Shown piece after piece: positions 10,941 through 25,486 of a stretch of DNA of 64,000 bases. The position numbers and the translations under genes are program-made. Origin of the DNA: Actinomycetota bacterium (GTDB lineage Bacteria; Actinomycetota; Thermoleophilia; Solirubrobacterales; Solirubrobacteraceae); assembly GCA_009699865.1 (NCBI GenBank), contig WLNJ01000004.1:1-64000 (forward strand). The letters run 5' to 3'. Below the pieces are notes generated by a model. It searched no databases, was not told the origin of the DNA, and saw nothing but the letters and a program-made list of their open reading frames with translations. Each line of letters begins with the position of its first letter. Position 1 is the stretch's first letter.

Positions 10941-11407
10941 GCGATCGGAGGCCGGGTTGTTGGTGACGGGACTATTTCGTCACCAACATTGATGATCCCG
11001 CCGCTGACAATCTCAGCGCGCAGACCACCACGCATCACGAGCGCTTTGAGAACCCCGGGATGCGTGAGTGATTCGATGTAGTGACAGGGATGGCACAGCT
11101 CAGAGCCTCTGCACTGGACGGGGCCAATCATGAAGTCACGACCGACCAAGTCATTCAGGTCAATTCCTGTGACGACGAGGTTCCTTCGCAGGAGGGGTTC
11201 CTCCACCGCTAGCCCCTCGGCGGCAAGGTGCTCGTAGGCCTCGCGTTCGATCAGGGTGATGTTGTCTCCTGAGTGCGGGCCTGGTTCATCAAGCAGGTAT
11301 CGGTCCCCAGCTAGGCCACGGCCGGTAATTGCCTCGACGGACTCAAGGATCGTGGGTTCGTCGCCTGATTCCAGCGAGACCATCAGCACCTCCACCCGAC
11401 CCGGCAT
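10937..11407 (-). CDS. MOSC-domain protein
   Basis: The product has 156 residues. The start is fixed by the overlap with the upstream gene: TGATG places the ATG (11407) on the last base of the stop codon, so the two are translationally coupled. The frame stays open to 11518 but that part lies inside the upstream gene. MOSC features are GRGLAGDRY near residue 30, ITLIEREAYEHL, the cysteine pair in GSELCHPCHYIES, and the C-terminal RGGLRAEIVSGG..NVGDEI. MOSC domains use a conserved cysteine in molybdenum-cofactor sulfur chemistry. Stand-alone short forms like this have no settled substrate. Confidence 0.88.
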   Translation of the reverse strand: MPGRVEVLMVSLESGDEPTILESVEAITGRGLAGDRYLLDEPGPHSGDNITLIEREAYEHLAAEGLAVEEPLLRRNLVVTGIDLNDLVGRDFMIGPVQCRGSELCHPCHYIESLTHPGVLKALVMRGGLRAEIVSGGIINVGDEIVPSPTTRPPIA

Positions 11408-12687
11408 CAGCTTGTTTGGGTTAGAGCGGCGACGGCCTGTTCGCCCGCATGCCGGCCGGTCGATAGAGCGCCTTCGATTGAGGCAGTGGCCTGGTGATCG
11501 CCTGCGACCCAAAGCCAAGGCTTGAGGCGTAGGTCACGCTCGAGAGGATTGAGTGATCCAACCGGCTGGGTTGGAAGAGCACGCTTGATTCGATCAACAC
11601 GCAGCGTTCGCCAAGCGTTGACCTGCGGGCCATACCACTGGCCAAGTTGAGTACGGACCTGAAGGTCAAGTTTCTCGTCGTCGTCGTGCAGGTCCGGCTC
11701 GAGGATGGAGCAGGTCACGAGTGAACTACCGGTTGGGGCATAGCCGGGTGCCACAGCAGACATCACCTGAAGGTTGTTGACCGGCCCTGAGTTCTCACCG
11801 TCGAGCACCAAGATCGGCTCGCTGTGCGGCGCCCTTGACCCTGTGTCGAATGCGATCTGCCCGACACGGCTCCACTCAGGAGCTTCAAGACCGGCAACAA
11901 GCTTGGCCGCCCTCCGCCCGTCAGTGGCGACAACGACAGCGTCAGCGTCAAGCCAGCCTTGGCCCTTTATCTTGACCCGGCCCTTCTCAACGGCAGTCAC
12001 CTTGGCGCCCAGCCTGACTGTTCCAATTGGCAAGGCCCCGAGCATCATCTGTGGCAGCCTCCTCATCCCGTCCCCAGGGACTGTTGCTACCCCACGGGAG
12101 AAGTGTTCAAGCAGAAATTCGAGGAATCGCGAGCTGGTCTGCAGGTGTGGGTCAAGGGTTATCCCGGCCAGGAACGGCCTCCAGAACGACTCCAGCATTG
12201 ACTCGCTGACCCCAGCCACTTCAAGGGCTGTGAGGATCGTTGTGTCGCCGTCTTCGGGCGGCTCGCTGGCGGCGCTGCGTGCCTGCCTCAGGAGTCGCAC
12301 CACGGCGATCAGATCACGCGGGCGAACCAGTCCACCACCGAGCATCTTCGGCGCGCTCGCCGGCTTGCGCAGTGGGTCTGCCAGGCGAAGAAATGAGCCA
12401 CCGCGGCGGACCAGCGCACCAGGCTCAAACCGATAGAGGCCAAGTGCGTTCATGTCTACATGTCTGTGCACTTCGTCGTAGGAGTCGAGGATGACCTGGA
12501 AGCCATGGTCGATCAGGAATCCGTCGACCTCGTCGGTCCAGACGCGCCCGCCTGGCCTGTCGTTTGATTCCAAGACGGTGACCCGCGCCCCAGCTTCAAC
12601 GACCGCCCTTGCGCAGGCGAGCCCTGCGAGTCCTGCTCCAATGACAACTACATGCTTGCCGGTTGTATTGCCCACGCCGTCAATCAT
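11407..12687 (-). CDS. FAD-dependent oxidoreductase (amine oxidase / phytoene desaturase / PPO type)
   Basis: The product has 426 residues. The FAD Rossmann motif VVVIGAGLAGLACA is at residues 13-26, followed by VTVLESNDRPGGRVWTDEVDGFLIDHGFQV, the standard N-terminus of NAD(P)-binding Rossmann flavoproteins of the amine-oxidase superfamily. A C-terminal FAD-contact segment is seen in WLWVAGDHQATASIEGALSTGRHAGE. It resembles protoporphyrinogen-oxidase- or carotenoid-desaturase-like proteins of actinobacteria and cyanobacteria, but lacks a motif that names the substrate. The downstream MOSC gene is coupled through TGATG. About 100 bases separate its start from the divergent DUF11 surface protein. 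Confidence 0.88.
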   Translation of the reverse strand: MIDGVGNTTGKHVVVIGAGLAGLACARAVVEAGARVTVLESNDRPGGRVWTDEVDGFLIDHGFQVILDSYDEVHRHVDMNALGLYRFEPGALVRRGGSFLRLADPLRKPASAPKMLGGGLVRPRDLIAVVRLLRQARSAASEPPEDGDTTILTALEVAGVSESMLESFWRPFLAGITLDPHLQTSSRFLEFLLEHFSRGVATVPGDGMRRLPQMMLGALPIGTVRLGAKVTAVEKGRVKIKGQGWLDADAVVVATDGRRAAKLVAGLEAPEWSRVGQIAFDTGSRAPHSEPILVLDGENSGPVNNLQVMSAVAPGYAPTGSSLVTCSILEPDLHDDDEKLDLQVRTQLGQWYGPQVNAWRTLRVDRIKRALPTQPVGSLNPLERDLRLKPWLWVAGDHQATASIEGALSTGRHAGEQAVAALTQTS

Positions 12688-16246: not shown

Positions 16247-17668
16247 TTAGCGACAGCGGACGAAGGCGCTGAAGGTGTCGTTGCCTGCCAAGTACTTGAA
16301 GCCGGGTGGCCTAGCCTCGTCAATTGGCAGGTCAATACCCGGGTGGCTGTAGCGGTCAGCGATCTGCTGGCCAGCAGCCTCGACGAAGATGGTCAGGGCA
16401 ACCCCACGGCTCGGCGCAGGCTTCTGCCCTCTTCCCCGAACGATTGCTTCCGGGTCACCGAGCAACAGTTTTGCGTCGGGAACCAATCGGAACGATGGAA
16501 AGGTCAGCGGACCACAGGCAAGGCTCTTACTAACGGCCCTACGATCGAGGAGGTCAGCTAGGTCCGCATGGACCTTGCGATCAATCTGGATTTCGTCCCG
16601 CAACTTGAAGCCAACTCCAACCACGGCAATCAGTGATCCGGCGATAAGGCAGGTGACTCCGGCTGCACGCCATGAGCGGTTGAGCTGAGGCGACCCATTC
16701 GCCCAGCCTCCGAGCGCATAGCCGGCAAGAAGGGCCAACCCGAGGTCGCAGAGCAACAGGTACCGAGGAAGCAGAGTCAATCCGCCTAGGGCGATCAACA
16801 CTGCCATTGCGACACCGGTACCGATCAGCGCCACTGGAATGGCGAGGCTCGCGCGTGGAACACGGGTCCAGGCAAGCCAGAGTCCAAGCAGGCCCAAGAG
16901 GGTTACTGGCCCGCGGATTCCTCCAAGCAGCACCGTGCCCACAACACTGAGTGCCCCGCCGCTTCCGTCAACAGCAAGGTTGTGGGCTGTGCGTAGGGAG
17001 AGGAATGCGTCTCCTGTTAGGGACCAGTCAAGTCCAAACCAGATCGCCGGGGGAGCCAAGACAGCTGCGACCAGCAGCATTCGCCTACCTCGCGTTGCCC
17101 CGCGCCAACCTAGGCCGGCGGCAAGTGCGGCCAAGAGCCATGCCTCTGGCCGCAGCAGACCTGCCAGCAGCAGTGGCAGCCAACCAGCTGTAGGCGATCG
17201 CCTCTGTGCGATGAGAAGCCCAGCACTACTGACCAGCAGCAGGAACCACACGTCTAAGTAGCCCCGCATGGCCTGGAGCAGGAGCCCATAGGAGCCGATC
17301 ATCAAGAGCCAGGCGACTACCCCGGCAAGGCCAGCTCCAAAAATCTCGCGACCCAGTTTCCAGAGAACTGGGAGGAGGAGGAACAGTGCCGTCAGCGTCA
17401 GTGTTAGAAACGCGGTGTTGGCACCTCCCGTCAGCCCAAATGGGGCAGACACCATGGCGACTGCCAAGAGCAGTGGGTGTTCCGTTGGGGCAGCCCAGAC
17501 ATCAAGGCTTGGTGACAGACCATGCTCGATCTGATCTGCCCAGAGCAGATGCCATGAGGAGTCGTATCCGGTCTGCGCGCCGCTCAGGGTGACTATCAGC
17601 CAGGCAACCCCAGCAACCAGCAAGCCTCCGCAGCCGACTGTCGCAACTTTGCGGCGTGAGTCGGTCAT
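16247..17668 (-). CDS. Polytopic membrane protein, GT-C-like putative glycosyltransferase
   Basis: The product has 473 residues and about 11 hydrophobic segments. After the first TM there is a loop with TGYDSSWHLLWADQIEHG and later PTEHPLL; acidic residues in this first extracytoplasmic loop are typical of lipid-sugar-dependent GT-C enzymes. A second marker is LLRPEAWLL in the middle, which recurs as LLRPEVWVF in the protein at 20699-22252, so the two are related. A soluble C-terminal part follows the last TM. The start ATG overlaps the O-antigen-ligase-like stop by 4 bases, so the two genes are probably co-translated. The donor and acceptor are unknown. Confidence 0.75.
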   Translation of the reverse strand: MTDSRRKVATVGCGGLLVAGVAWLIVTLSGAQTGYDSSWHLLWADQIEHGLSPSLDVWAAPTEHPLLLAVAMVSAPFGLTGGANTAFLTLTLTALFLLLPVLWKLGREIFGAGLAGVVAWLLMIGSYGLLLQAMRGYLDVWFLLLVSSAGLLIAQRRSPTAGWLPLLLAGLLRPEAWLLAALAAGLGWRGATRGRRMLLVAAVLAPPAIWFGLDWSLTGDAFLSLRTAHNLAVDGSGGALSVVGTVLLGGIRGPVTLLGLLGLWLAWTRVPRASLAIPVALIGTGVAMAVLIALGGLTLLPRYLLLCDLGLALLAGYALGGWANGSPQLNRSWRAAGVTCLIAGSLIAVVGVGFKLRDEIQIDRKVHADLADLLDRRAVSKSLACGPLTFPSFRLVPDAKLLLGDPEAIVRGRGQKPAPSRGVALTIFVEAAGQQIADRYSHPGIDLPIDEARPPGFKYLAGNDTFSAFVRCR

Positions 17669-19230
17669 GTAGCTGGAGCTGGTTGTGCAGCGACGGCTGG
17701 GTCGTCCCCTTCGGACCGGCGGGCCTCGCGCCCGGCTCTCCGCTGCTCACGCGTCAGCGGGATCGGGAGCGCGACTCCGAGACCTAGGATGACCCACATG
17801 CTCGGGTCCTCAAAGAAAGCCGCGTAAGTCATGGAGTGCACGACCAGAGCAGCGAGTCCAGCTGTGGCGGCCGTCCTAGCCGTGGACCGCCTGGCTCCCT
17901 GAGAGACCCGGAGGAACCCTGCGATAAGGACCAGAAGGTAAGCGATCAAGCCGAGGATCCCTTCCTCGGCAGCCGCGGTAACTGGGGTGGTGTGCGACGC
18001 TGAAACAGCTGTCGGCGCACCGGCCTTCTGCTCCTGCCTGTAGGCCTTGGAGAACGAGCCTGAGCCCCAGCCGGCGAGGGGCCGAGCCGTGAACAGGTCG
18101 ATCCCTCCGCTCACCAAGTTGGCGTGTCCGCTGGACTCGTTGTTGAGCACGCGCAGTGAGTGGATCTTGATTCCGTCCTTGGCCGGCGCAACGACGACTG
18201 CTGTCACGCCAATTGCTGCCAGAGCCAGAGTGATCACGCCCACCTTCCACCACGACCAGCGGAGCGCGGCAATAACGGCAAGCCCTGCGAGTAGACCAAC
18301 AAGGCTTGACTGGGAGAGTGTCATCACCATCGCGGCCAGCAGTACAGCTATCCCTCCCGCTAGTGCAGCGATGTCGCGTGCGCGGCGCGTGTCCAGCAGC
18401 GTTGCGCTGAGACCAACCAGCACGAGCATCAGGAACCGGCCAAAGATGTTCGGGTCAAAGAAGACGGAGTTGACGCGGAAGTAAGTGTGGAACTGGTTGC
18501 TGATCAGGAGCTTGGGGTTGAGCAGCAGTGTTTCTGTCCCGAACTCGTAGAACGCGATCGCACTGAACGCAAGTGCCAACCCAACCAGCACCATGGCGCA
18601 GCCGCGGATCAGTTGAGGCGTCCACTTCACCCGCACAATCAGCAAGTAGAGAATGCTGAACGGAATGTAGAAGAACACCGCTTGCTGCACCGCCTTGCTG
18701 GGGTCACTGGACCAGAGCGATCCGATGCCGTAAAGCAAGAGCCACCCGGCGAGTGCCCAGTCGATCAGGGTCGCAGGCCGCTCCTCGTCAGCAGATTTAC
18801 CCAGTACTAGTGGAGCCGCCCATGCAACCGCGCCCGCGGCGACCACAAGGTAAAGGGGGAGCAGCAGGTTGGCCGTGTCACCCCCGACTTGGATTGGCAA
18901 CCGGAACGGAAGGGCGATCGCTACGAGAATTGGAAACGCCCGGCTGTTCTTCTGGAGGACGAAAGCGAGCCCTGCGATAAGCCCAAGGCCCACGATTCCT
19001 AGCCCGATTGCTGCCAGCGGCGAGGTATGGATGAACGACAGCTGGGGCGAATCACTGAGGTCAAGTACGAGCAGAGCAGGCGCTAGGGCCAGGGCGATCA
19101 GAGCCAAGATTCCCCGCAGGCGCTCGTGTCCAACCACCAAAGCGGCAGCGCCTACCGTGGTGACGATGAGGACACCGGCTGTTGATATTGGTCCTGATAG
19201 CGCGGCTAGAAGTGGTGTCACGGCTCGCAT
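17665..19230 (-). CDS. O-antigen ligase / Wzy-like polymerase family membrane protein
   Basis: The product has 521 residues and about 12 TM segments. It shows the Wzy_C/WaaL pattern: a large extracytoplasmic loop preceded by NSVFFDPNIFGRFLM, then GWGSGSFSKAYRQEQ and a segment like SASHTTPVTAAAEEGILGLIAYL, which matches the usual 'SHN..l...aE.G..G' region of ligases and polymerases. The C-terminus is a charged cytoplasmic tail (TREQRRAGREARRSEGDD). Such proteins join or polymerise lipid-linked glycans outside the membrane. In an actinobacterium this points to an envelope or capsule polymer, or to protein O-glycosylation. It is first of a two-gene minus-strand unit with the GT-C-like gene. Confidence 0.85.
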   Translation of the reverse strand: MRAVTPLLAALSGPISTAGVLIVTTVGAAALVVGHERLRGILALIALALAPALLVLDLSDSPQLSFIHTSPLAAIGLGIVGLGLIAGLAFVLQKNSRAFPILVAIALPFRLPIQVGGDTANLLLPLYLVVAAGAVAWAAPLVLGKSADEERPATLIDWALAGWLLLYGIGSLWSSDPSKAVQQAVFFYIPFSILYLLIVRVKWTPQLIRGCAMVLVGLALAFSAIAFYEFGTETLLLNPKLLISNQFHTYFRVNSVFFDPNIFGRFLMLVLVGLSATLLDTRRARDIAALAGGIAVLLAAMVMTLSQSSLVGLLAGLAVIAALRWSWWKVGVITLALAAIGVTAVVVAPAKDGIKIHSLRVLNNESSGHANLVSGGIDLFTARPLAGWGSGSFSKAYRQEQKAGAPTAVSASHTTPVTAAAEEGILGLIAYLLVLIAGFLRVSQGARRSTARTAATAGLAALVVHSMTYAAFFEDPSMWVILGLGVALPIPLTREQRRAGREARRSEGDDPAVAAQPAPAT

Positions 19231-19282
19231 AGTTTATGCCCACCGCCTACGAAGGCCGAGCGATTGGCTACCGTCTTGCCTC

Positions 19283-19654
19283 GTGAAGCTTCCTCTCGCA
19301 GCAACCTTGGCAGCAGCCCTGCTTCTGTCCGGATGTGGCAGCGAGCGCACCCCCCTGCAATCAGGCGGGCAAAATGCTGTGGTCGGTGGGTCAGCTGGAT
19401 ACCAGCCCTACCAGACCCGCGATATCGCTCTCAACTGCATTAAGGGCCGCGGAATCAGCGCTACTCCGGTTGGCCGCGATCTGATCCTGCTGAGTGCGCC
19501 GGGGGCAAGGATTGTGTTTGAAGCTGACCGCGGCGTCTCCTCCGGGATGCAGGTAAGAGGCCAAGTTGAAGGTGCTGAAGTGATTGGTGGCGCCGTCTTC
19601 TATGTCGGCTCGGCGGATACGGCTGTGACCTCGGGCGTGGAAGGCTGCCTCTGA
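19283..19654 (+). CDS. Putative lipoprotein
   Basis: The product has 123 residues. The GTG at 19283 gives a textbook lipoprotein leader, MKLPLAATLAAALLLSGCGS, with the lipid-modified Cys at residue 18. The open frame reaches far upstream (18869), but that part lies antisense to the ligase gene and is not used. The mature protein has about 105 residues, is rich in beta-type sequence and contains two further cysteines (LNCIKGRG and the final EGCL), which may form a disulfide. The family is not recognised. It is the first gene of a plus-strand run with the flippase-like and GT-C-like genes and is divergent from the ligase, with 52 bases between the starts. Confidence 0.7.
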   Translation: MKLPLAATLAAALLLSGCGSERTPLQSGGQNAVVGGSAGYQPYQTRDIALNCIKGRGISATPVGRDLILLSAPGARIVFEADRGVSSGMQVRGQVEGAEVIGGAVFYVGSADTAVTSGVEGCL

Positions 19655-19676
19655 CCCTCAGGTCTGAGGCCCTCTG

Positions 19677-20699
19677 ATGTCACGACTCCGCAATCTTCAC
19701 AAGTCCAAGGTTCTACAAGGCATCCTTTGGCTCGTCCCGCTGGCCGCGGTCATCTACTGGGCCACCACCCAGCAAGCGCCCAAGTGGCCAGATACTCAGA
19801 GTGAATGGGCCTGGCTCGCCGGTGCCCTCGGGGCTTATGCGGTCGTGACCTTGATGCGAGGGGAGAGGTGGCACAGCATCCTCTGGACTTCAAGGATTGA
19901 AGCGACGCGGAGTGACGCCTACGGGCTGACGGTTGTTGGTTACGCCGGCAATAACGTCCTTCCCGCCCGTGGTGGCGAGCTATTGAGGGTCTTCCTTCTC
20001 TCGTCGCGAACTGATGCCAAGCGCAGAACTGTGATCGGGACGATCTTGGCCGAGCGCATCTTGGACGCGATCGCTCTGGGCGGAATCCTCCTAGTAGTGG
20101 CTTACGACTTGATCAAGAAGTTGGGAAGTCCCTCCCCACTTCTGGTCCTGATTGGGCTGGTTGCTCTTGGGGTCATGGCATTGGCCGCGGCTTACGCTTG
20201 GTGGCGTCACCGACATCACGCCCAGCGGTTGCTTGACGCCGTCCTGCCGATACTGCTTCCGCTCAAGCCATTGTTGAGTGTTAAGGGCCTTGTCCTGCTG
20301 GTAGGTTCGGTGTTGATCTGGCTGGTTGAGGCCTCGGTCTACGGGATGGTCGCCGAATCCGTTGGGATCCACCTCGGCGCTACTGGCTCAATGTCGGTTG
20401 TTGCGTTCGCAAACCTTGCGGCGCTGGTACCTGCCGCACCTGGGTATATCGGCACGTATGACGCGGCCGTGATCTTTGCGACAAATGCTGTGACCCACGC
20501 GAAGGTGCCGGTTTCATTCTTGATTCTGCTCCGGTTCGTGGTGTTCGTTCCGATCTCGATCGTTGGGTTTGCTCTCCTCTTCCTCCGTTACGGGGGCCTC
20601 TCACGGTTGAGGGCAGCCCGCCAAGCTGGGCCTGAGGTCCCAAGTCTTGAACTCCCCGTGGTACCGGTGGACGGGGCCCCTCAGGGGGAGCCTGCTTGA
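19677..20699 (+). CDS. LPG-synthase TM region / UPF0104 (flippase-like) membrane protein
   Basis: The product has 340 residues and about 8 hydrophobic segments. The conserved signature of the lysylphosphatidylglycerol-synthase transmembrane family is visible: GNNVLPARGGELLRVFLL (about residues 83-100), followed by the AERILDA motif. Stand-alone members have been linked to flippase-like roles and to glycan-lipid handling. The extra soluble LPG-synthase catalytic domain is absent. Its TGA overlaps the next gene's ATG by one base (TGATG), so translation is coupled to the GT-C-like protein. Confidence 0.85.
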   Translation: MSRLRNLHKSKVLQGILWLVPLAAVIYWATTQQAPKWPDTQSEWAWLAGALGAYAVVTLMRGERWHSILWTSRIEATRSDAYGLTVVGYAGNNVLPARGGELLRVFLLSSRTDAKRRTVIGTILAERILDAIALGGILLVVAYDLIKKLGSPSPLLVLIGLVALGVMALAAAYAWWRHRHHAQRLLDAVLPILLPLKPLLSVKGLVLLVGSVLIWLVEASVYGMVAESVGIHLGATGSMSVVAFANLAALVPAAPGYIGTYDAAVIFATNAVTHAKVPVSFLILLRFVVFVPISIVGFALLFLRYGGLSRLRAARQAGPEVPSLELPVVPVDGAPQGEPA

Positions 20700-22252
20700 T
20701 GTCGGCGATCGCCAGCGCTTTGCCCACCAGGCAGTCGTTTACAGCAGCACGTCTTGCGCAGCCGGCTGTCTTGGTCGTCCTCGGCGCGCTGGTGCTGGCA
20801 GCTGTATCCCTTCTTTACCCATCTACCCCGACCTACGATCCGTGGGCGTGGATTGTCTGGGGCAGGGAGACACTTGAGCTCAACCTGACGACCACCGGCG
20901 GGCCATCGTGGAAGCCGCTGCCGATGCTGTTCACCGTCCCGTTTGCACTCTTTGGTCAGGCCAGCCCGGACCTGTGGATCATTGTTGCCCGAGCCGGGTC
21001 GATCATCTCGCTAGTGCTGACCTTTCTGCTCGCCGGGCTGCTGTGCGAGCGAGCCTTTGATGAAGCTGAAGCACCGAGGTTTGGCTGGGTCGCAATCTTG
21101 GCCGGTGGAGTCGCTGTCGTTGGAGTTCTATTCCAGACGGGCTTCATCCGAGTCACCATGCTGGCCGACTCCGAGGGTCTCGTCAACGCGACCGCGTTCG
21201 GGGCGATCTACTACCACCTGCTCAACCGGAGGAAGGCAGCTCTTGTTCTGGCAACAGGCGCGGCCCTGTTGCGGCCCGAGGTCTGGGTATTCCTTGGGCT
21301 CTACGGCGTCTGGCTGTGGTTTGCCAATCCGGAACTGCGCCGGCTACTGATCGGTTGCGCTATCACCGTGCCAGTGCTGTGGCTGGTCCCGGAGTACATC
21401 GGGTCCGGCAATCTGTTCCGCGCGGCGGCTCGAGCACAGCACCCGAACGAGTACTCGCCGGCATTTGCCGACAACCCCTTCTTTCAGACTCTGAAGGAGA
21501 CACGCCCCAACATTCCGTCGGCAATCAAGCCTGCGATTCAACTTGGCGCGCTGTTTGCCCTGTGGGCAGCCTGGCGCCGCCGCTTCGCGCCCTTGGCAGT
21601 CCTTGTGGCAGCTCTCGGGTGGATCACTCTGATTGCTGGGATGACCAACTTCGGCTTTGCTGGGAACCCTCGCTACATGATGCTCGGCACCTCGCTTCTC
21701 GCGGTGATCGCAGGGTTTGGAGCCGGTAGTGCCTTGGCTACCGTGAGGAACCTTGCCCGCCGGGTTGACCCGCTCTTGGTCACCCTAGTCACCTTGGTTG
21801 GCTTTGCTGCACTGCCCACCGCGCTATGGGTACGGGGCATTGACGAGCGCGTTCATCGGCTCCAGCACCTTGATGTAGTTCTGCATCAGGAGGCGCAGCG
21901 CCGCGACATGTTGCCCGCCGCTATTTCGATTGGTGGCGGATCCAAGGCGCTCCTTGCCTGTGGTGAGGTGACCACCGAGCGCTTCCAAGTGCCGCTCGTT
22001 GCCTGGTATTTGCATACCCGCCTGTCCCGTGTGGGAATGGGAGTTGAGGAAAGCGGGAAGCCGGGAGGCTGGACTTCGCCTCCGATCCCGGGGACAGCAC
22101 TTCAGACATCCTCACCAGGCAATCCGCCCAATCCCATCGCCGGTCCCCCCGGCAGCCGGACCCTTGGCAAGTCTGGCCCGTGGACTGTGCTCCAAGCCTG
22201 CTCTACACCCAAACAAGGGTCCGTCCTTGCGGGCGCGAATAGGTCCAGATGA
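20699..22252 (+). CDS. Polytopic GT-C-like putative glycosyltransferase
   Basis: The product has 517 residues from the ATG at 20699 (a TTG one codon earlier is possible). About 11 TM segments are visible. The first extracytoplasmic loop contains TPTYDPWAWIVWGRE, comparable to YDSSWHLLWADQ in the protein encoded at 16247-17668. LLRPEVWVFLGLY also matches that paralogue. A long loop follows (GSGNLFRAAARAQHPNEYS). The C-terminal 130 residues are soluble and Pro/Gly-rich near the end, with two cysteines (LLACGEV, LQACSTP). Likely a lipid-phosphosugar-dependent enzyme acting outside the membrane. The stop overlaps the next gene's start by 4 bases (ATGA). Confidence 0.75.
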   Translation: MSAIASALPTRQSFTAARLAQPAVLVVLGALVLAAVSLLYPSTPTYDPWAWIVWGRETLELNLTTTGGPSWKPLPMLFTVPFALFGQASPDLWIIVARAGSIISLVLTFLLAGLLCERAFDEAEAPRFGWVAILAGGVAVVGVLFQTGFIRVTMLADSEGLVNATAFGAIYYHLLNRRKAALVLATGAALLRPEVWVFLGLYGVWLWFANPELRRLLIGCAITVPVLWLVPEYIGSGNLFRAAARAQHPNEYSPAFADNPFFQTLKETRPNIPSAIKPAIQLGALFALWAAWRRRFAPLAVLVAALGWITLIAGMTNFGFAGNPRYMMLGTSLLAVIAGFGAGSALATVRNLARRVDPLLVTLVTLVGFAALPTALWVRGIDERVHRLQHLDVVLHQEAQRRDMLPAAISIGGGSKALLACGEVTTERFQVPLVAWYLHTRLSRVGMGVEESGKPGGWTSPPIPGTALQTSSPGNPPNPIAGPPGSRTLGKSGPWTVLQACSTPKQGSVLAGANRSR

Positions 22253-23874
22253 GTAGCCCGATCAGCTCCACTGGCAAGCGCGAGGACAGGATCCTCAAGC
22301 GGGCGATCTCGCCTCCTATGGCAGCAGCCGTGTTCGTCGCTGGCCTCGTTGTCTTCTCGGCCTGGCTGCGGTCGCGGTCCATCAGCACATCGTTCTGGAT
22401 GGACGAAGCGCTCTCGGTTGGGATCTCGTCCCACGACCTGATGGACATTCCCCATGCCCTCCGGCACGATGGCTCCCCGCCCCTCTATTACATGTTGCTG
22501 AGCGTCTGGATGGGTGCGTTCGGGCGCACCGAGTCAGCCACTCATGCCCTTTCTCTTGTTGCTGCGCTGGCGTGCATCCCGCTGGGTGCTTGGACTGGCT
22601 GGCGGCTGTTTGATCGTCGAACCGGGCTGATCCTCGCGACGCTGCTGGCTGTATCCGTGTTCATGACTCAGTACGCGGAAGAGACGCGTATGTACACCCT
22701 GATGGCCTTGCTTTCGCTTGGTGCCGTGGGAGCGTTCTGCCTCGCCTTTGTAGACCGGCAGAGGCGCTGGCTTCCAGTTTTCTCAGTGCTTCTAGCGGGA
22801 ATGCTCTACACACACGGTTGGGGAATCTTCTTTGGAATCAGCTGCGGAATCGCCGGCCTGTACCTAGTCACTAAGTCCACTGACCGCAAGTCGCTGATTA
22901 TCGACGGGCTGATGGCATTCGGGTTTACGGCGCTGCTCTACCTGCCATGGCTCCCAACGCTGCTCTACCAAGCAGGCCACACGGGAGCCCCGTGGTCTTC
23001 GTCCCCCCGACTGGGCGTCTTCAGCCAAGTGGCCACTCTCCTTGGCGGTTGGGGAACAGCCGCCGCGCTTCTCGTTGGCGCCACTGTAGGTATCACCGCA
23101 ATCCTCCTTCGCCGGCCAGTTCTAGAAGGACCTGGGGTCCTGCCAACTGACACAAATCCTGACCGGACCAAGACTTTGCTCCTTGCCATCGTGGTGATCA
23201 TCACCGGCACCTTGGCGATCGCCTGGACCGCGTCACAGTTCAACCCAGCTTGGACGCAGCGTTACATGGCAGCCGTTATTTGCCCGATCCTTCTTGTGCT
23301 TGCCGTAGGAGCAGCCCGGTCCGGGGTTGTAGGGCTCGTTGGCACCTTGGCCGCAGTTAGCTTGGCCCTAGTTGCTCCCACCAATGCCACGCTCCACATC
23401 AAGAGCAATGTGCGTGACATTGCAGCGGGCGTGCGCAGTGACCTGCGACCAGGGGATTTGGTCATCAACGGTCAGCCTGAGCAGGTGCCACTCTCCTGGT
23501 ACTACATGCCCGGGGGACTTCACTTTGCGGATCCAATGGGGCGAACCTCTGACCCGCGGATGCTCAACTGGGTTCACGTCGTCGCGCGCCTTCAGGCGGC
23601 TGAGCCAGCCAAGACTTATGAGCGGCTGATGGCAACGGTTCCGAACGGCAGCCGCATTCTCTTGGTCCGCCCGTTGACGATCACGCGCTCCAACTGGGTT
23701 CAGTCTTGGACCCAGTTGATCCGCCTGCGGTCAGCGCAGTGGAGTGGCTTACTTGCCCACGACCCTCGCCTAGTAAGGTTGAAAGCCGTTCCGTGGTTCT
23801 ACATTTCGCCGTCTGCGGTTGGCAACTCGGCAGTTCTCTATGAGAAGAGGACTCCGGCAGGTACCAAGCGATAA
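22249..23874 (+). CDS. GT-C (PMT/GT39-like) glycosyltransferase
   Basis: The product has 541 residues. It has the clearest glycosyltransferase features of the cluster. After TM1 comes SFWMDEALSVGISSHDL, with the Asp-Glu motif of PMT/ArnT-type enzymes, then RHDGSPPLYYMLLSVWM, the usual second half of the catalytic loop. QYAEETRMYTLMALLS is another family mark. About 10-12 TM segments precede a soluble C-terminal domain of about 150 residues. These enzymes move a sugar from a polyprenyl-phosphate to protein or glycan on the outer face of the membrane. It is the last member of the overlapping run and is followed after 57 bases by a flavoprotein gene. Confidence 0.85.
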   Translation: MSSPISSTGKREDRILKRAISPPMAAAVFVAGLVVFSAWLRSRSISTSFWMDEALSVGISSHDLMDIPHALRHDGSPPLYYMLLSVWMGAFGRTESATHALSLVAALACIPLGAWTGWRLFDRRTGLILATLLAVSVFMTQYAEETRMYTLMALLSLGAVGAFCLAFVDRQRRWLPVFSVLLAGMLYTHGWGIFFGISCGIAGLYLVTKSTDRKSLIIDGLMAFGFTALLYLPWLPTLLYQAGHTGAPWSSSPRLGVFSQVATLLGGWGTAAALLVGATVGITAILLRRPVLEGPGVLPTDTNPDRTKTLLLAIVVIITGTLAIAWTASQFNPAWTQRYMAAVICPILLVLAVGAARSGVVGLVGTLAAVSLALVAPTNATLHIKSNVRDIAAGVRSDLRPGDLVINGQPEQVPLSWYYMPGGLHFADPMGRTSDPRMLNWVHVVARLQAAEPAKTYERLMATVPNGSRILLVRPLTITRSNWVQSWTQLIRLRSAQWSGLLAHDPRLVRLKAVPWFYISPSAVGNSAVLYEKRTPAGTKR

Positions 23875-23931: not shown

Positions 23932-25440
23932 ATGACTCCACCCAACCCTCCCATCACCCCTGAAAACCCAGTCGTAGTGCTTGGCGGCGGACCCGCTGGT
24001 TTGACTGCCGGATACCTGATGGCCAAGCGCGGTCAGCCAGTACTCGTTCTTGAAGCCACCGACATGCTTGGTGGCATCGCGCGCACCGAGATCCGCGATG
24101 GCTACCGGTTTGACCTTGGTGGCCACCGCTTCTTCACCAAGGCCACGGAAGTGAACGAGCTTTGGGACGAGATCATGGGCGACGAGTTCCTCCAGCGTCC
24201 TCGTATGTCCCGGATCTACTGGAACAAGAAGTTCCTTGACTATCCCCTGCAGGGAATGGATGTCATCAAGAAGCTTGGGCCGTTTGAGCTGATGCGTGCA
24301 GGCCTTTCATACCTTTGGGCTGCGATCACGCCAAAGGGCCCTGAGGACAACCTTGAGCAGTGGGTGTCAAACCGTTTCGGCAAGCGCCTTTACACACTGT
24401 TCTTCAAGTCCTACACCGAGAAGGTCTGGGGTGTGCCATGCACGGAGATCCAAGCGGAGTGGGCTGCCCAGCGCATCAAGGGCCTTTCGTTCTTCTCAGC
24501 GGCCAAGGCCGCATTCCTTGGCAACAAGGACAACAAGATCAAGTCACTGATTGACAGCTTCAACTACCCACGCTTCGGCCCAGGCCAGATGTGGGAGCGG
24601 ATGAGCGAGAAGATCGTTGAGCGCGGCGGCGAGGTGCGGATGAACGCTCCTGTCTCCAAGATCAACGTCCGTAATGGTCAGGTTGTCAGCGTTATCGCCG
24701 GCGGCGTGGAGATTCCATGCAGCCATGTTGTCTCGTCACTCGCCCTGCGCAACACCGTTGGGTTTGCTGACCCTGAGCTCTCACCTGAGATCCGCGATGC
24801 CGCGAAGGGCTTGCGCTACCGCGACTTCCTCACCGTTGGCCTTGTGCTTGAGGTGGACGATGTTGTCAACGAGCCTTTCCCGGACAACTGGATCTACATC
24901 CATGACCCCGAGGTAACCGCAGGGCGTATTCAGAACTTCCGTTCATGGAGCCCATGGATGGTTCCCGATCCAGACGTCAACGAGACCTGCATTGGACTTG
25001 AGTACTTCTGCTTCGAGGGCGACGAGCTGTGGGAGATGGCTGATGAGGATCTTGTCGAGCTTGGCAAGCGTGAGCTCACGCAGCTTGGCCTTGGCGACTC
25101 AAGCCGTGTCAAGCAGGGCTTTGCGGTCCGCGTTGAGAAGGCCTATCCGATGTACGACCCGGACTACGACGTCCGTGTCGGTGTCATCCGCGACTGGCTT
25201 GAGACAGTTCCAAACCTTGTCCAGGTTGGGCGTAACGGCCTCCACCGCTACAACAACTCGGATCACTCAATGCTTACCTCAATGCGCGCGGTGGAGAACA
25301 TCCTCGACGGCGCTGGCCATGACATTTGGGCGGTAAACGCTGAGAGCGCTTACCACGAGGAGGACGAGGACGCCAAGGAGATTCAGCCTTACATCAACGT
25401 CCCAACTCCCAAGTCGATGGATAAGCCGCTCTCCGAGTAG
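23932..25440 (+). CDS. FAD-dependent oxidoreductase (UGM / protoporphyrinogen-oxidase-like)
   Basis: The product has 502 residues. The FAD motif [18 protein letters not shown] begins near residue 14 and is followed by [16 protein letters not shown] and the [10 protein letters not shown] signature. That signature is shared by UDP-galactopyranose-mutase-like flavoproteins and 'protoporphyrinogen oxidase' annotations in glycan clusters. Other conserved stretches are [13 protein letters not shown] and [13 protein letters not shown] near the C-terminus, where FAD and substrate are held. Its place beside the GT-C genes favours a role in sugar or glycan modification, but a true mutase activity is not shown by the sequence. 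An AAAGAG lies just before the start, and a palindrome CTACGTAG sits at 23914-23921. Confidence 0.85.
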
Positions 25441-25463: not shown

Positions 25464-25486
25464 AAGGGCCGCCATGCGCGGCCCTT
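25464..25486 (+). terminator. Hairpin after the FAD oxidoreductase gene, likely terminator
   Basis: A perfect 9-bp stem AAGGGCCGC (25464-25472) pairs with GCGGCCCTT (25478-25486) across the loop CATGC. It lies 24 bases after the stop codon. There is no long T-run, only scattered Ts downstream, so termination may be partial. The hairpin separates the glycan-related block from the aconitase operon. Confidence 0.6.

What the first reader, a model, noticed from the sequence alone, without database searches (positions are those of the whole stretch)
16247..23874. Compact glycan-assembly cluster of polytopic proteins without cytosolic glycosyltransferases
Two back-to-back units contain an O-antigen-ligase-like protein, three GT-C-like proteins (two of them related through YDxxW and LLRPExW motifs), an LPG-synthase/flippase-type protein and a lipoprotein. 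Every recognisable transferase is a membrane GT-C type; no GT-A/GT-B enzyme is present. All junctions within the two units are overlapping except those around the lipoprotein. This could be an extracytoplasmic glycosylation or arabinan-like polymer system serving the adjacent DUF11 surface protein.
Basis: partly seen in the sequence, partly recalled or inferred. Interest (0 to 1): 0.65.

Follow-up and report, generated by a model that had tools for sequence, protein, structure and literature searches.

The report
Conserved GT-C surface-glycan locus with mutase
This is a conserved gene cluster of soil and freshwater actinobacteria that probably builds a surface sugar chain outside the cell membrane, and just past the reported end it carries a relative of the fungal and parasite enzyme that makes the unusual sugar galactofuranose, which suggests what one of its sugars may be.

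Summary
The six genes are present as described. The GT-C calls hold: models of gtcB and gtcC (pLDDT 87 and 91) both match ArnT, then AglB/PglB, ALG9/12 and AftA; gtcA is a full-length homologue of gtcB. The next gene (23932-25440) is a flavin enzyme of the UDP-galactopyranose-mutase (UGM) superfamily, nearest to eukaryotic UGMs, with 11 of 14 compared ligand and flavin contacts kept. The gtcB-gtcC-UGM core recurs in at least 30 Thermoleophilia loci. wzyC-gtcA is a second module, found in relatives inside Wzx-type polysaccharide loci. 'No cytosolic glycosyltransferases' is true only locally: the genome has 12 GT2 domains, GT4, Wzx, initiating transferases and a Dpm1-like synthase elsewhere. The arabinan idea is contradicted: no Emb or DprE1-type family is detected in this genome, and a relative carrying the core has galactose but no arabinose. 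DUF11 is a neighbour only in the window's genus. Best explanation: extracytoplasmic GT-C addition of a furanose, probably galactofuranose, to a Wzy-type surface polysaccharide. It is a new variant of a known kind; no experiment supports the sugar or the acceptor.

The parts
16247..17668 (-). gtcA: GT-C-type membrane glycosyltransferase, homologue of gtcB (YDSSW, LLRPEAW)
17665..19230 (-). wzyC: O-antigen ligase/polymerase-like membrane protein (Wzy_C), about 12 hydrophobic segments
19231..19282 (.). 52-bp gap between the divergent wzyC and lipoprotein units; the divergent arrangement is kept in relatives. No sigma-70-like promoter match found
19283..19654 (+). small predicted lipoprotein (GTG start, lipobox LSGC), rapidly diverging family found with the locus in relatives
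19677..20699 (+). flp: LPG_synthase_TM / TIGR00374 flippase-like membrane protein; absent from several otherwise conserved loci
20696..22252 (+). gtcB: GT-C fold glycosyltransferase (nearest solved structure ArnT); invariant Y47-D48-P49 in the first loop after TM1
22249..23874 (+). gtcC: GT-C fold glycosyltransferase of PMT_2 type; invariant W50, D52 and E53 in the first loop after TM1
23932..25440 (+). UGM-like: FAD enzyme of the UDP-galactopyranose-mutase superfamily (NCBIfam PRK07208), active-site arginines and flavin histidine conserved
25464..25486 (+). 9-bp G+C-rich hairpin between the UGM-like gene and aconitase, likely end of the transcript (60-nt fold z = -3.0)

Best explanation
The locus assembles and decorates a surface polysaccharide on the outer face of the membrane. 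The proposed order is as follows. (1) The UGM-like flavoenzyme converts a UDP-hexopyranose into the furanose form in the cytosol, most likely UDP-galactofuranose. (2) A synthase encoded elsewhere, such as the Dpm1-like GT2 on contig C23, loads the sugar onto polyprenyl phosphate. (3) The lipid-linked sugar is flipped, with flp the local candidate. (4) gtcB and gtcC, the paired GT-Cs of the core, transfer sugars from the lipid donor to the growing glycan outside. (5) wzyC polymerises or ligates the glycan, with gtcA as a third GT-C contributed by a linked module. Shown here: gene order, its conservation, the GT-C folds, the UGM superfamily and its conserved contacts, and that cytosolic enzymes exist in trans. 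Inferred: sugar identity, lipid donor, acceptor, and the role of each GT-C.
For: gtcB-gtcC-UGM adjacency in at least 30 of 71 orthologous loci, mostly Thermoleophilia; many of the others are cut by contig ends. gtcB and gtcC are fused in one 983-aa frame in a sister species. GT-C folds for both, with ArnT (an undecaprenyl-phosphate-sugar enzyme) as top hit. The UGM-like profile hits A. fumigatus UGM at 1e-32 and T. cruzi UGM over its full length at 4.7e-25; the counterparts of H63, Y104, F158, W167, R182, Y317, R327, Y419, R447, Y453 and N457 are identical in 9 of 9 rows (roles from PMC3624792). No other gene passes the family cut-off and there is no canonical GLF in this genome. S. deserti, which carries the core (L127/L128), has cell galactose and no arabinose (PMC10722151). 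wzyC lies divergently next to the core in 17 loci. Dpm1-like GT2, GT4, Wzx and PF02397 enzymes in trans.
Against: AfUGM N207 (a galactose contact) and N163 are replaced by invariant I and T, and Q107 varies, so the substrate may differ. No lipid-phosphate furanose synthase is in the locus. The Dpm1-like candidate resembles pyranose enzymes. flp is missing from several otherwise intact loci, so it is not essential to the core. UDP-Galf could instead be used by cytosolic GTs. Whole-cell TLC cannot tell furanose from pyranose.
Confidence: 0.5

Rival explanations
1. The UGM-like enzyme makes UDP-Galf for cytosolic GT2/GT4 enzymes that build the lipid-linked repeat unit, while gtcA, gtcB and gtcC add unrelated sugars (mannose, glucose) from lipid-phosphate donors outside. 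The genes share a pathway but not a sugar.
For: Cytosolic GTs, Wzx and initiating transferases exist elsewhere in the genome. In well-known bacterial pathways UDP-Galf is used by cytosolic transferases (own knowledge). The Dpm1-like GT2 resembles AglJ and dolichyl-phosphate hexose enzymes.
Against: The most constant partner of the UGM-like gene here is gtcC, followed by gtcB, rather than a GT2.
Confidence: 0.27
2. The FAD protein is a redox enzyme (desaturase or oxidase of a carrier lipid or sugar) and not a mutase.
For: NCBI leaves the PRK07208 models as 'hypothetical protein', and Amino_oxidase is its best Pfam match.
Against: Best solved relatives are UGMs over the substrate domain, and UDP-sugar-contacting residues are invariant, which a redox paralogue would not need to keep.
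Confidence: 0.13
3. The cluster glycosylates the neighbouring DUF11 surface protein (protein O-glycosylation).
For: The DUF11 gene lies 3 bp from gtcA, convergent, and is kept next to it in two other species of the genus. GT-C folds resemble oligosaccharyltransferases and protein mannosyltransferases.
Against: DUF11 is absent beside the other wzyC-lipoprotein-gtcB-gtcC-UGM loci.
Confidence: 0.06
4. An arabinan-like polymer system as in Mycobacteriales.
For: AftA, AftB and AftD are among the structural matches of the GT-C models.
Against: No PF04602 (Emb) and no PF04030 (ALO) match in this genome, with positive control in C. glutamicum. No arabinose in the cell sugars of a relative that carries the core.
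Confidence: 0.03

Closest known systems
Multi-component (three-component) transmembrane glycosylation systems: GtrABC, GtlA/GtcA/GtlB, C. youngae GT136 pentofuranose system (PMC8035078, PMC11127046)
   Same: GT-C enzymes predicted to act outside the membrane on a surface polymer, with a flippase-like membrane protein; the GT136 system also delivers a furanose.
   Different: Two or three GT-Cs; no lipid-phosphate-sugar synthase in the locus; no GtrA detected in the genome; LPG_synthase_TM protein as the possible flippase; furanose would come from a flavin mutase instead of PRPP.
UDP-galactopyranose mutase, eukaryotic type (A. fumigatus, T. cruzi)
   Same: FAD fold and 11 of 14 compared contacts; domain-level homology at 1e-32.
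   Different: Bacterial; separate PRK07208 branch; N207, N163 and Q107 not kept; about 65% identical within the clade but distant from any characterised UGM.
Wzx/Wzy polysaccharide loci of Solirubrobacterales
   Same: wzyC-gtcA is embedded in such loci in ten relatives, with Wzx, CapD-like dehydratase, DegT and LytR_C among the neighbours.
   Different: In the window genus the pair sits alone beside the gtcB-gtcC-UGM unit.
Mycobacterial arabinogalactan/arabinan pathway
   Same: Membrane GT-C enzymes; a furanose-forming flavoenzyme of the UGM superfamily.
   Different: No Emb and no DprE1-type (ALO) family detected in the genome; no sequence hits of the GT-Cs to Emb/Aft chains in PDB.

Membership tests
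GT-C glycosyltransferase fold | Polytopic GT-C fold by structure comparison | tested here: met
   gtcB and gtcC: ArnT top hit, E about 1e-6, probability 1.00, TM about 0.5; gtcA by homology to gtcB only
GT-C glycosyltransferase fold | Conserved acidic residue in the first extracytoplasmic loop after TM1 | tested here: met
   D48 in gtcB and D52/E53 in gtcC invariant in 41 and 66 rows; D36 in gtcA invariant in 13 rows
Multi-component transmembrane glycosylation system | Polyprenyl-phosphate sugar synthase (GT-A) | tested here: inconclusive
   Absent from the locus; Dpm1/AglJ-like GT2 on another contig
Multi-component transmembrane glycosylation system | Dedicated flippase (GtrA, Wzx, SMR or MATE type) | tested here: inconclusive
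   No GtrA; flp is LPG_synthase_TM/TIGR00374 and not constant; Wzx exists in trans
Multi-component transmembrane glycosylation system | GT-C transfers from lipid-phosphate sugar | not testable with these tools
   needs a biochemical assay
UDP-galactopyranose mutase superfamily | FAD-binding GxGxxG and UGM domain homology | tested here: met
   G18-x-G20-x-x-G23 invariant; PDB profile hits
UDP-galactopyranose mutase superfamily | Substrate and flavin contacts of AfUGM (Table 3, PMC3624792) | tested here: met
   11 of 14 compared contacts identical in 9 of 9 rows, including R182 and R327 counterparts; N207, N163 and Q107 differ
UDP-galactopyranose mutase superfamily | UDP-Galp to UDP-Galf activity | not testable with these tools
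   enzyme assay needed
Canonical bacterial Glf (PF03275/TIGR00031) | Match above curated cut-off | tested here: not met
   13.4 bits against cut-off 26.3, and 37 against 303.75
Mycobacterial arabinan system | Emb-type PF04602 transferase | tested here: not met
Mycobacterial arabinan system | DprE1-type ALO domain (PF04030) | tested here: not met
Wzx/Wzy polysaccharide locus | Wzy-like polymerase/ligase in the locus | tested here: met
   Wzy_C 1.1e-13
Wzx/Wzy polysaccharide locus | Wzx, initiating transferase and cytosolic GTs in the same locus | tested here: not met
   They lie on other contigs

The most novel reading that the evidence does not exclude
A previously undescribed extracytoplasmic hexofuranosylation system of Thermoleophilia, in which a bacterial flavin mutase related to eukaryotic UGMs supplies a furanose that is carried as a polyprenyl-phosphate sugar and transferred outside the cell by a paired, sometimes fused, set of two GT-C enzymes of new families.
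Probability: 0.3. Interest if true: 0.65.

Novelty: new variant of a known kind. Interest (0 to 1): 0.42.

Why it matters
Envelope polysaccharides of Thermoleophilia, deep-branching soil and freshwater actinobacteria, are almost unstudied. A conserved core with a candidate furanose mutase gives a concrete prediction for their surface sugar. It also offers a GT-C family (gtcA/gtcB) with no database name above cut-off, and a bacterial clade of mutases near the eukaryotic enzymes. If the furanose is carried on polyprenyl phosphate, it would extend extracytoplasmic furanose transfer from pentoses to hexoses.

Tried and rejected
Arabinan system: rejected on missing Emb and ALO families and sugar data. 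DUF11 as the substrate: not conserved beyond the genus. Plasmid-borne origin: no plasmid match. PDB sequence searches with gtcA, gtcB, gtcC, wzyC and flp found nothing useful. A first gene-caller run mis-framed high-GC loci and was replaced. A first residue mapping onto AfUGM was off by three because the PDB chain index differs from the published numbering; it was redone. The tree of wzyC only weakly (82/72) joins the window genus with the wzyC-gtcA loci, so where the window's wzyC comes from is left open. Literature search for PRK07208 gave no paper.

Full report
Observation. Pfam identifies wzyC (Wzy_C, 1.1e-13), flp (LPG_synthase_TM, 1.9e-35) and gtcC (PMT_2, 1.1e-6); gtcA and gtcB match no family above its cut-off. 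LLRPExW is in both gtcA and gtcB, but YDxxW is exact only in gtcA.

Boundary. The gene 57 nt downstream of gtcC, 23932-25440, belongs to the locus. It is an FAD protein of NCBIfam PRK07208 (1.1e-193). It is followed by a 9-bp G+C-rich hairpin before the aconitase gene (z = -3.0, none of 200 shuffles as stable). So lipoprotein, flp, gtcB, gtcC and the UGM-like gene probably form one transcript that ends there (inference).

GT-C test. gtcB (pLDDT 87, 41 sequences) and gtcC (pLDDT 91, 66 sequences) both have ArnT as the top PDB fold match (E about 1e-6, probability 1.00), followed by AglB/PglB, ALG9/12 and AftA. TM-scores are about 0.5, so they share the fold class and not a close family. gtcA and gtcB are homologous over their full length (hhalign 99.7%, 3e-26). 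gtcC shows no convincing sequence relation to either. Acidic residues in the first loop after TM1 are invariant: D48 in gtcB, D52/E53 in gtcC, D36 in gtcA.

UGM-like gene. A nine-row profile hits A. fumigatus UGM (1e-32) and T. cruzi UGM over its full length (4.7e-25). Mapped onto the AfUGM contact list in Table 3 of PMC3624792, the counterparts of H63, Y104, F158, W167, R182, Y317, R327, Y419, R447, Y453 and N457 are identical in all nine rows; N207, N163 and Q107 differ. Mutation of R327 or R182 disables or strongly impairs AfUGM (PMC3893270). The protein is far below the cut-off of the canonical bacterial Glf models. The genome has no canonical GLF match and no second PRK07208 member above cut-off. 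It is therefore a UGM-superfamily enzyme whose substrate is probably, not certainly, UDP-galactose.

Synteny. Across 80 named loci, nearly all Actinomycetota and mostly Solirubrobacterales/Thermoleophilia with a few Acidimicrobiales, 71 carry a gtcC orthologue by score. Of 64 with room downstream, 44 have the UGM-like gene within 3 kb on the same strand by automatic gene ends. Of 65 with room upstream, 40 have gtcB directly before gtcC. All three occur together in at least 30 (four more, L099, L104, L108 and L109, show the gene). In a sister species gtcB and gtcC are one 983-aa frame (a draft assembly, so a sequencing frameshift is not excluded). wzyC lies divergently beside the core in 17 loci, with the small lipoprotein between in most. 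flp is absent in several such loci, so it is an accessory. gtcA is linked to the core only in the window genus. In ten other genomes wzyC-gtcA sits in loci whose neighbours include Wzx, a CapD-like dehydratase, DegT aminotransferase and LytR_C. The window is thus a junction of two modules.

Cytosolic enzymes. The genome (92% complete) has 12 GT2 domains, two PF02397 initiating transferases, two further Wzy_C proteins, and on contig C1 a locus with Wzx, GT2 and GT4. A 250-aa GT2 on contig C23 matches dolichol-phosphate mannose synthase over its length and AglJ-type models. The absence of GT-A/GT-B enzymes is a property of the interval only.

Arabinan and DUF11. PF04602 and PF04030 are not detected, with C. 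glutamicum positive. Solirubrobacter deserti CPCC 204708, which carries gtcB-gtcC-UGM (L127/L128, with about 2.4 kb between gtcC and the mutase gene), has galactose, xylose, rhamnose and ribose in cell hydrolysates, no arabinose (PMC10722151). DUF11 is a neighbour only within the genus.

Mechanism. The model follows multi-component transmembrane glycosylation (PMC8035078, PMC11127046). The mutase makes a UDP-furanose, a synthase in trans makes the polyprenyl-phosphate sugar, a flippase moves it, the GT-Cs transfer it outside, and wzyC polymerises or ligates. No GtrA is detected in the genome, which leaves flp or Wzx as candidate flippases. The sugar, donor lipid, acceptor and division of labour are inferred. 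The chief rival is that UDP-furanose is used by cytosolic enzymes and the GT-Cs add other sugars.

Verdict. It is a new variant of a known kind of system, of moderate interest because it makes a testable prediction about an unstudied envelope.

Noticed in passing
own genome contig C45:23721-26704 (locus L062, 8725-11699): Two tandem paralogues of gtcB (30-33% identical) lie elsewhere in the same genome; six gtcB-family matches in a 1.7 Mb genome is a lot.
   Followed up: partly
L087, L089, L092 (also L103, L105, L108, L112): In a second family of the order the core is preceded by a conserved pair: an uncharacterised 465-aa protein and a Sulfatase-domain (LtaS-like) protein, often with a GH2 glycosidase and a divergent copy of the small lipoprotein; a hint at the acceptor polymer.
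   Followed up: partly
L075:2602-3977 and L075:4035-7461: In same-genus draft genome G002 both gtcA and the DUF11 gene are split into overlapping frames, either frameshifts in the draft or decay.
   Followed up: no
L145:1855-5400: A gtcC homologue with an open frame of 1182 residues, about 650 longer than usual; possible fusion to an unknown domain.
   Followed up: no
L110:8075-14800: Locus with a second gtcB-like segment and a duplicated gtcC next to one UGM-like gene.
   Followed up: no
window 11407-12687 (-): A second flavin amine-oxidase-family gene stands upstream of DUF11 and is kept in the genus; not related to the UGM-like gene beyond the FAD domain.
   Followed up: no
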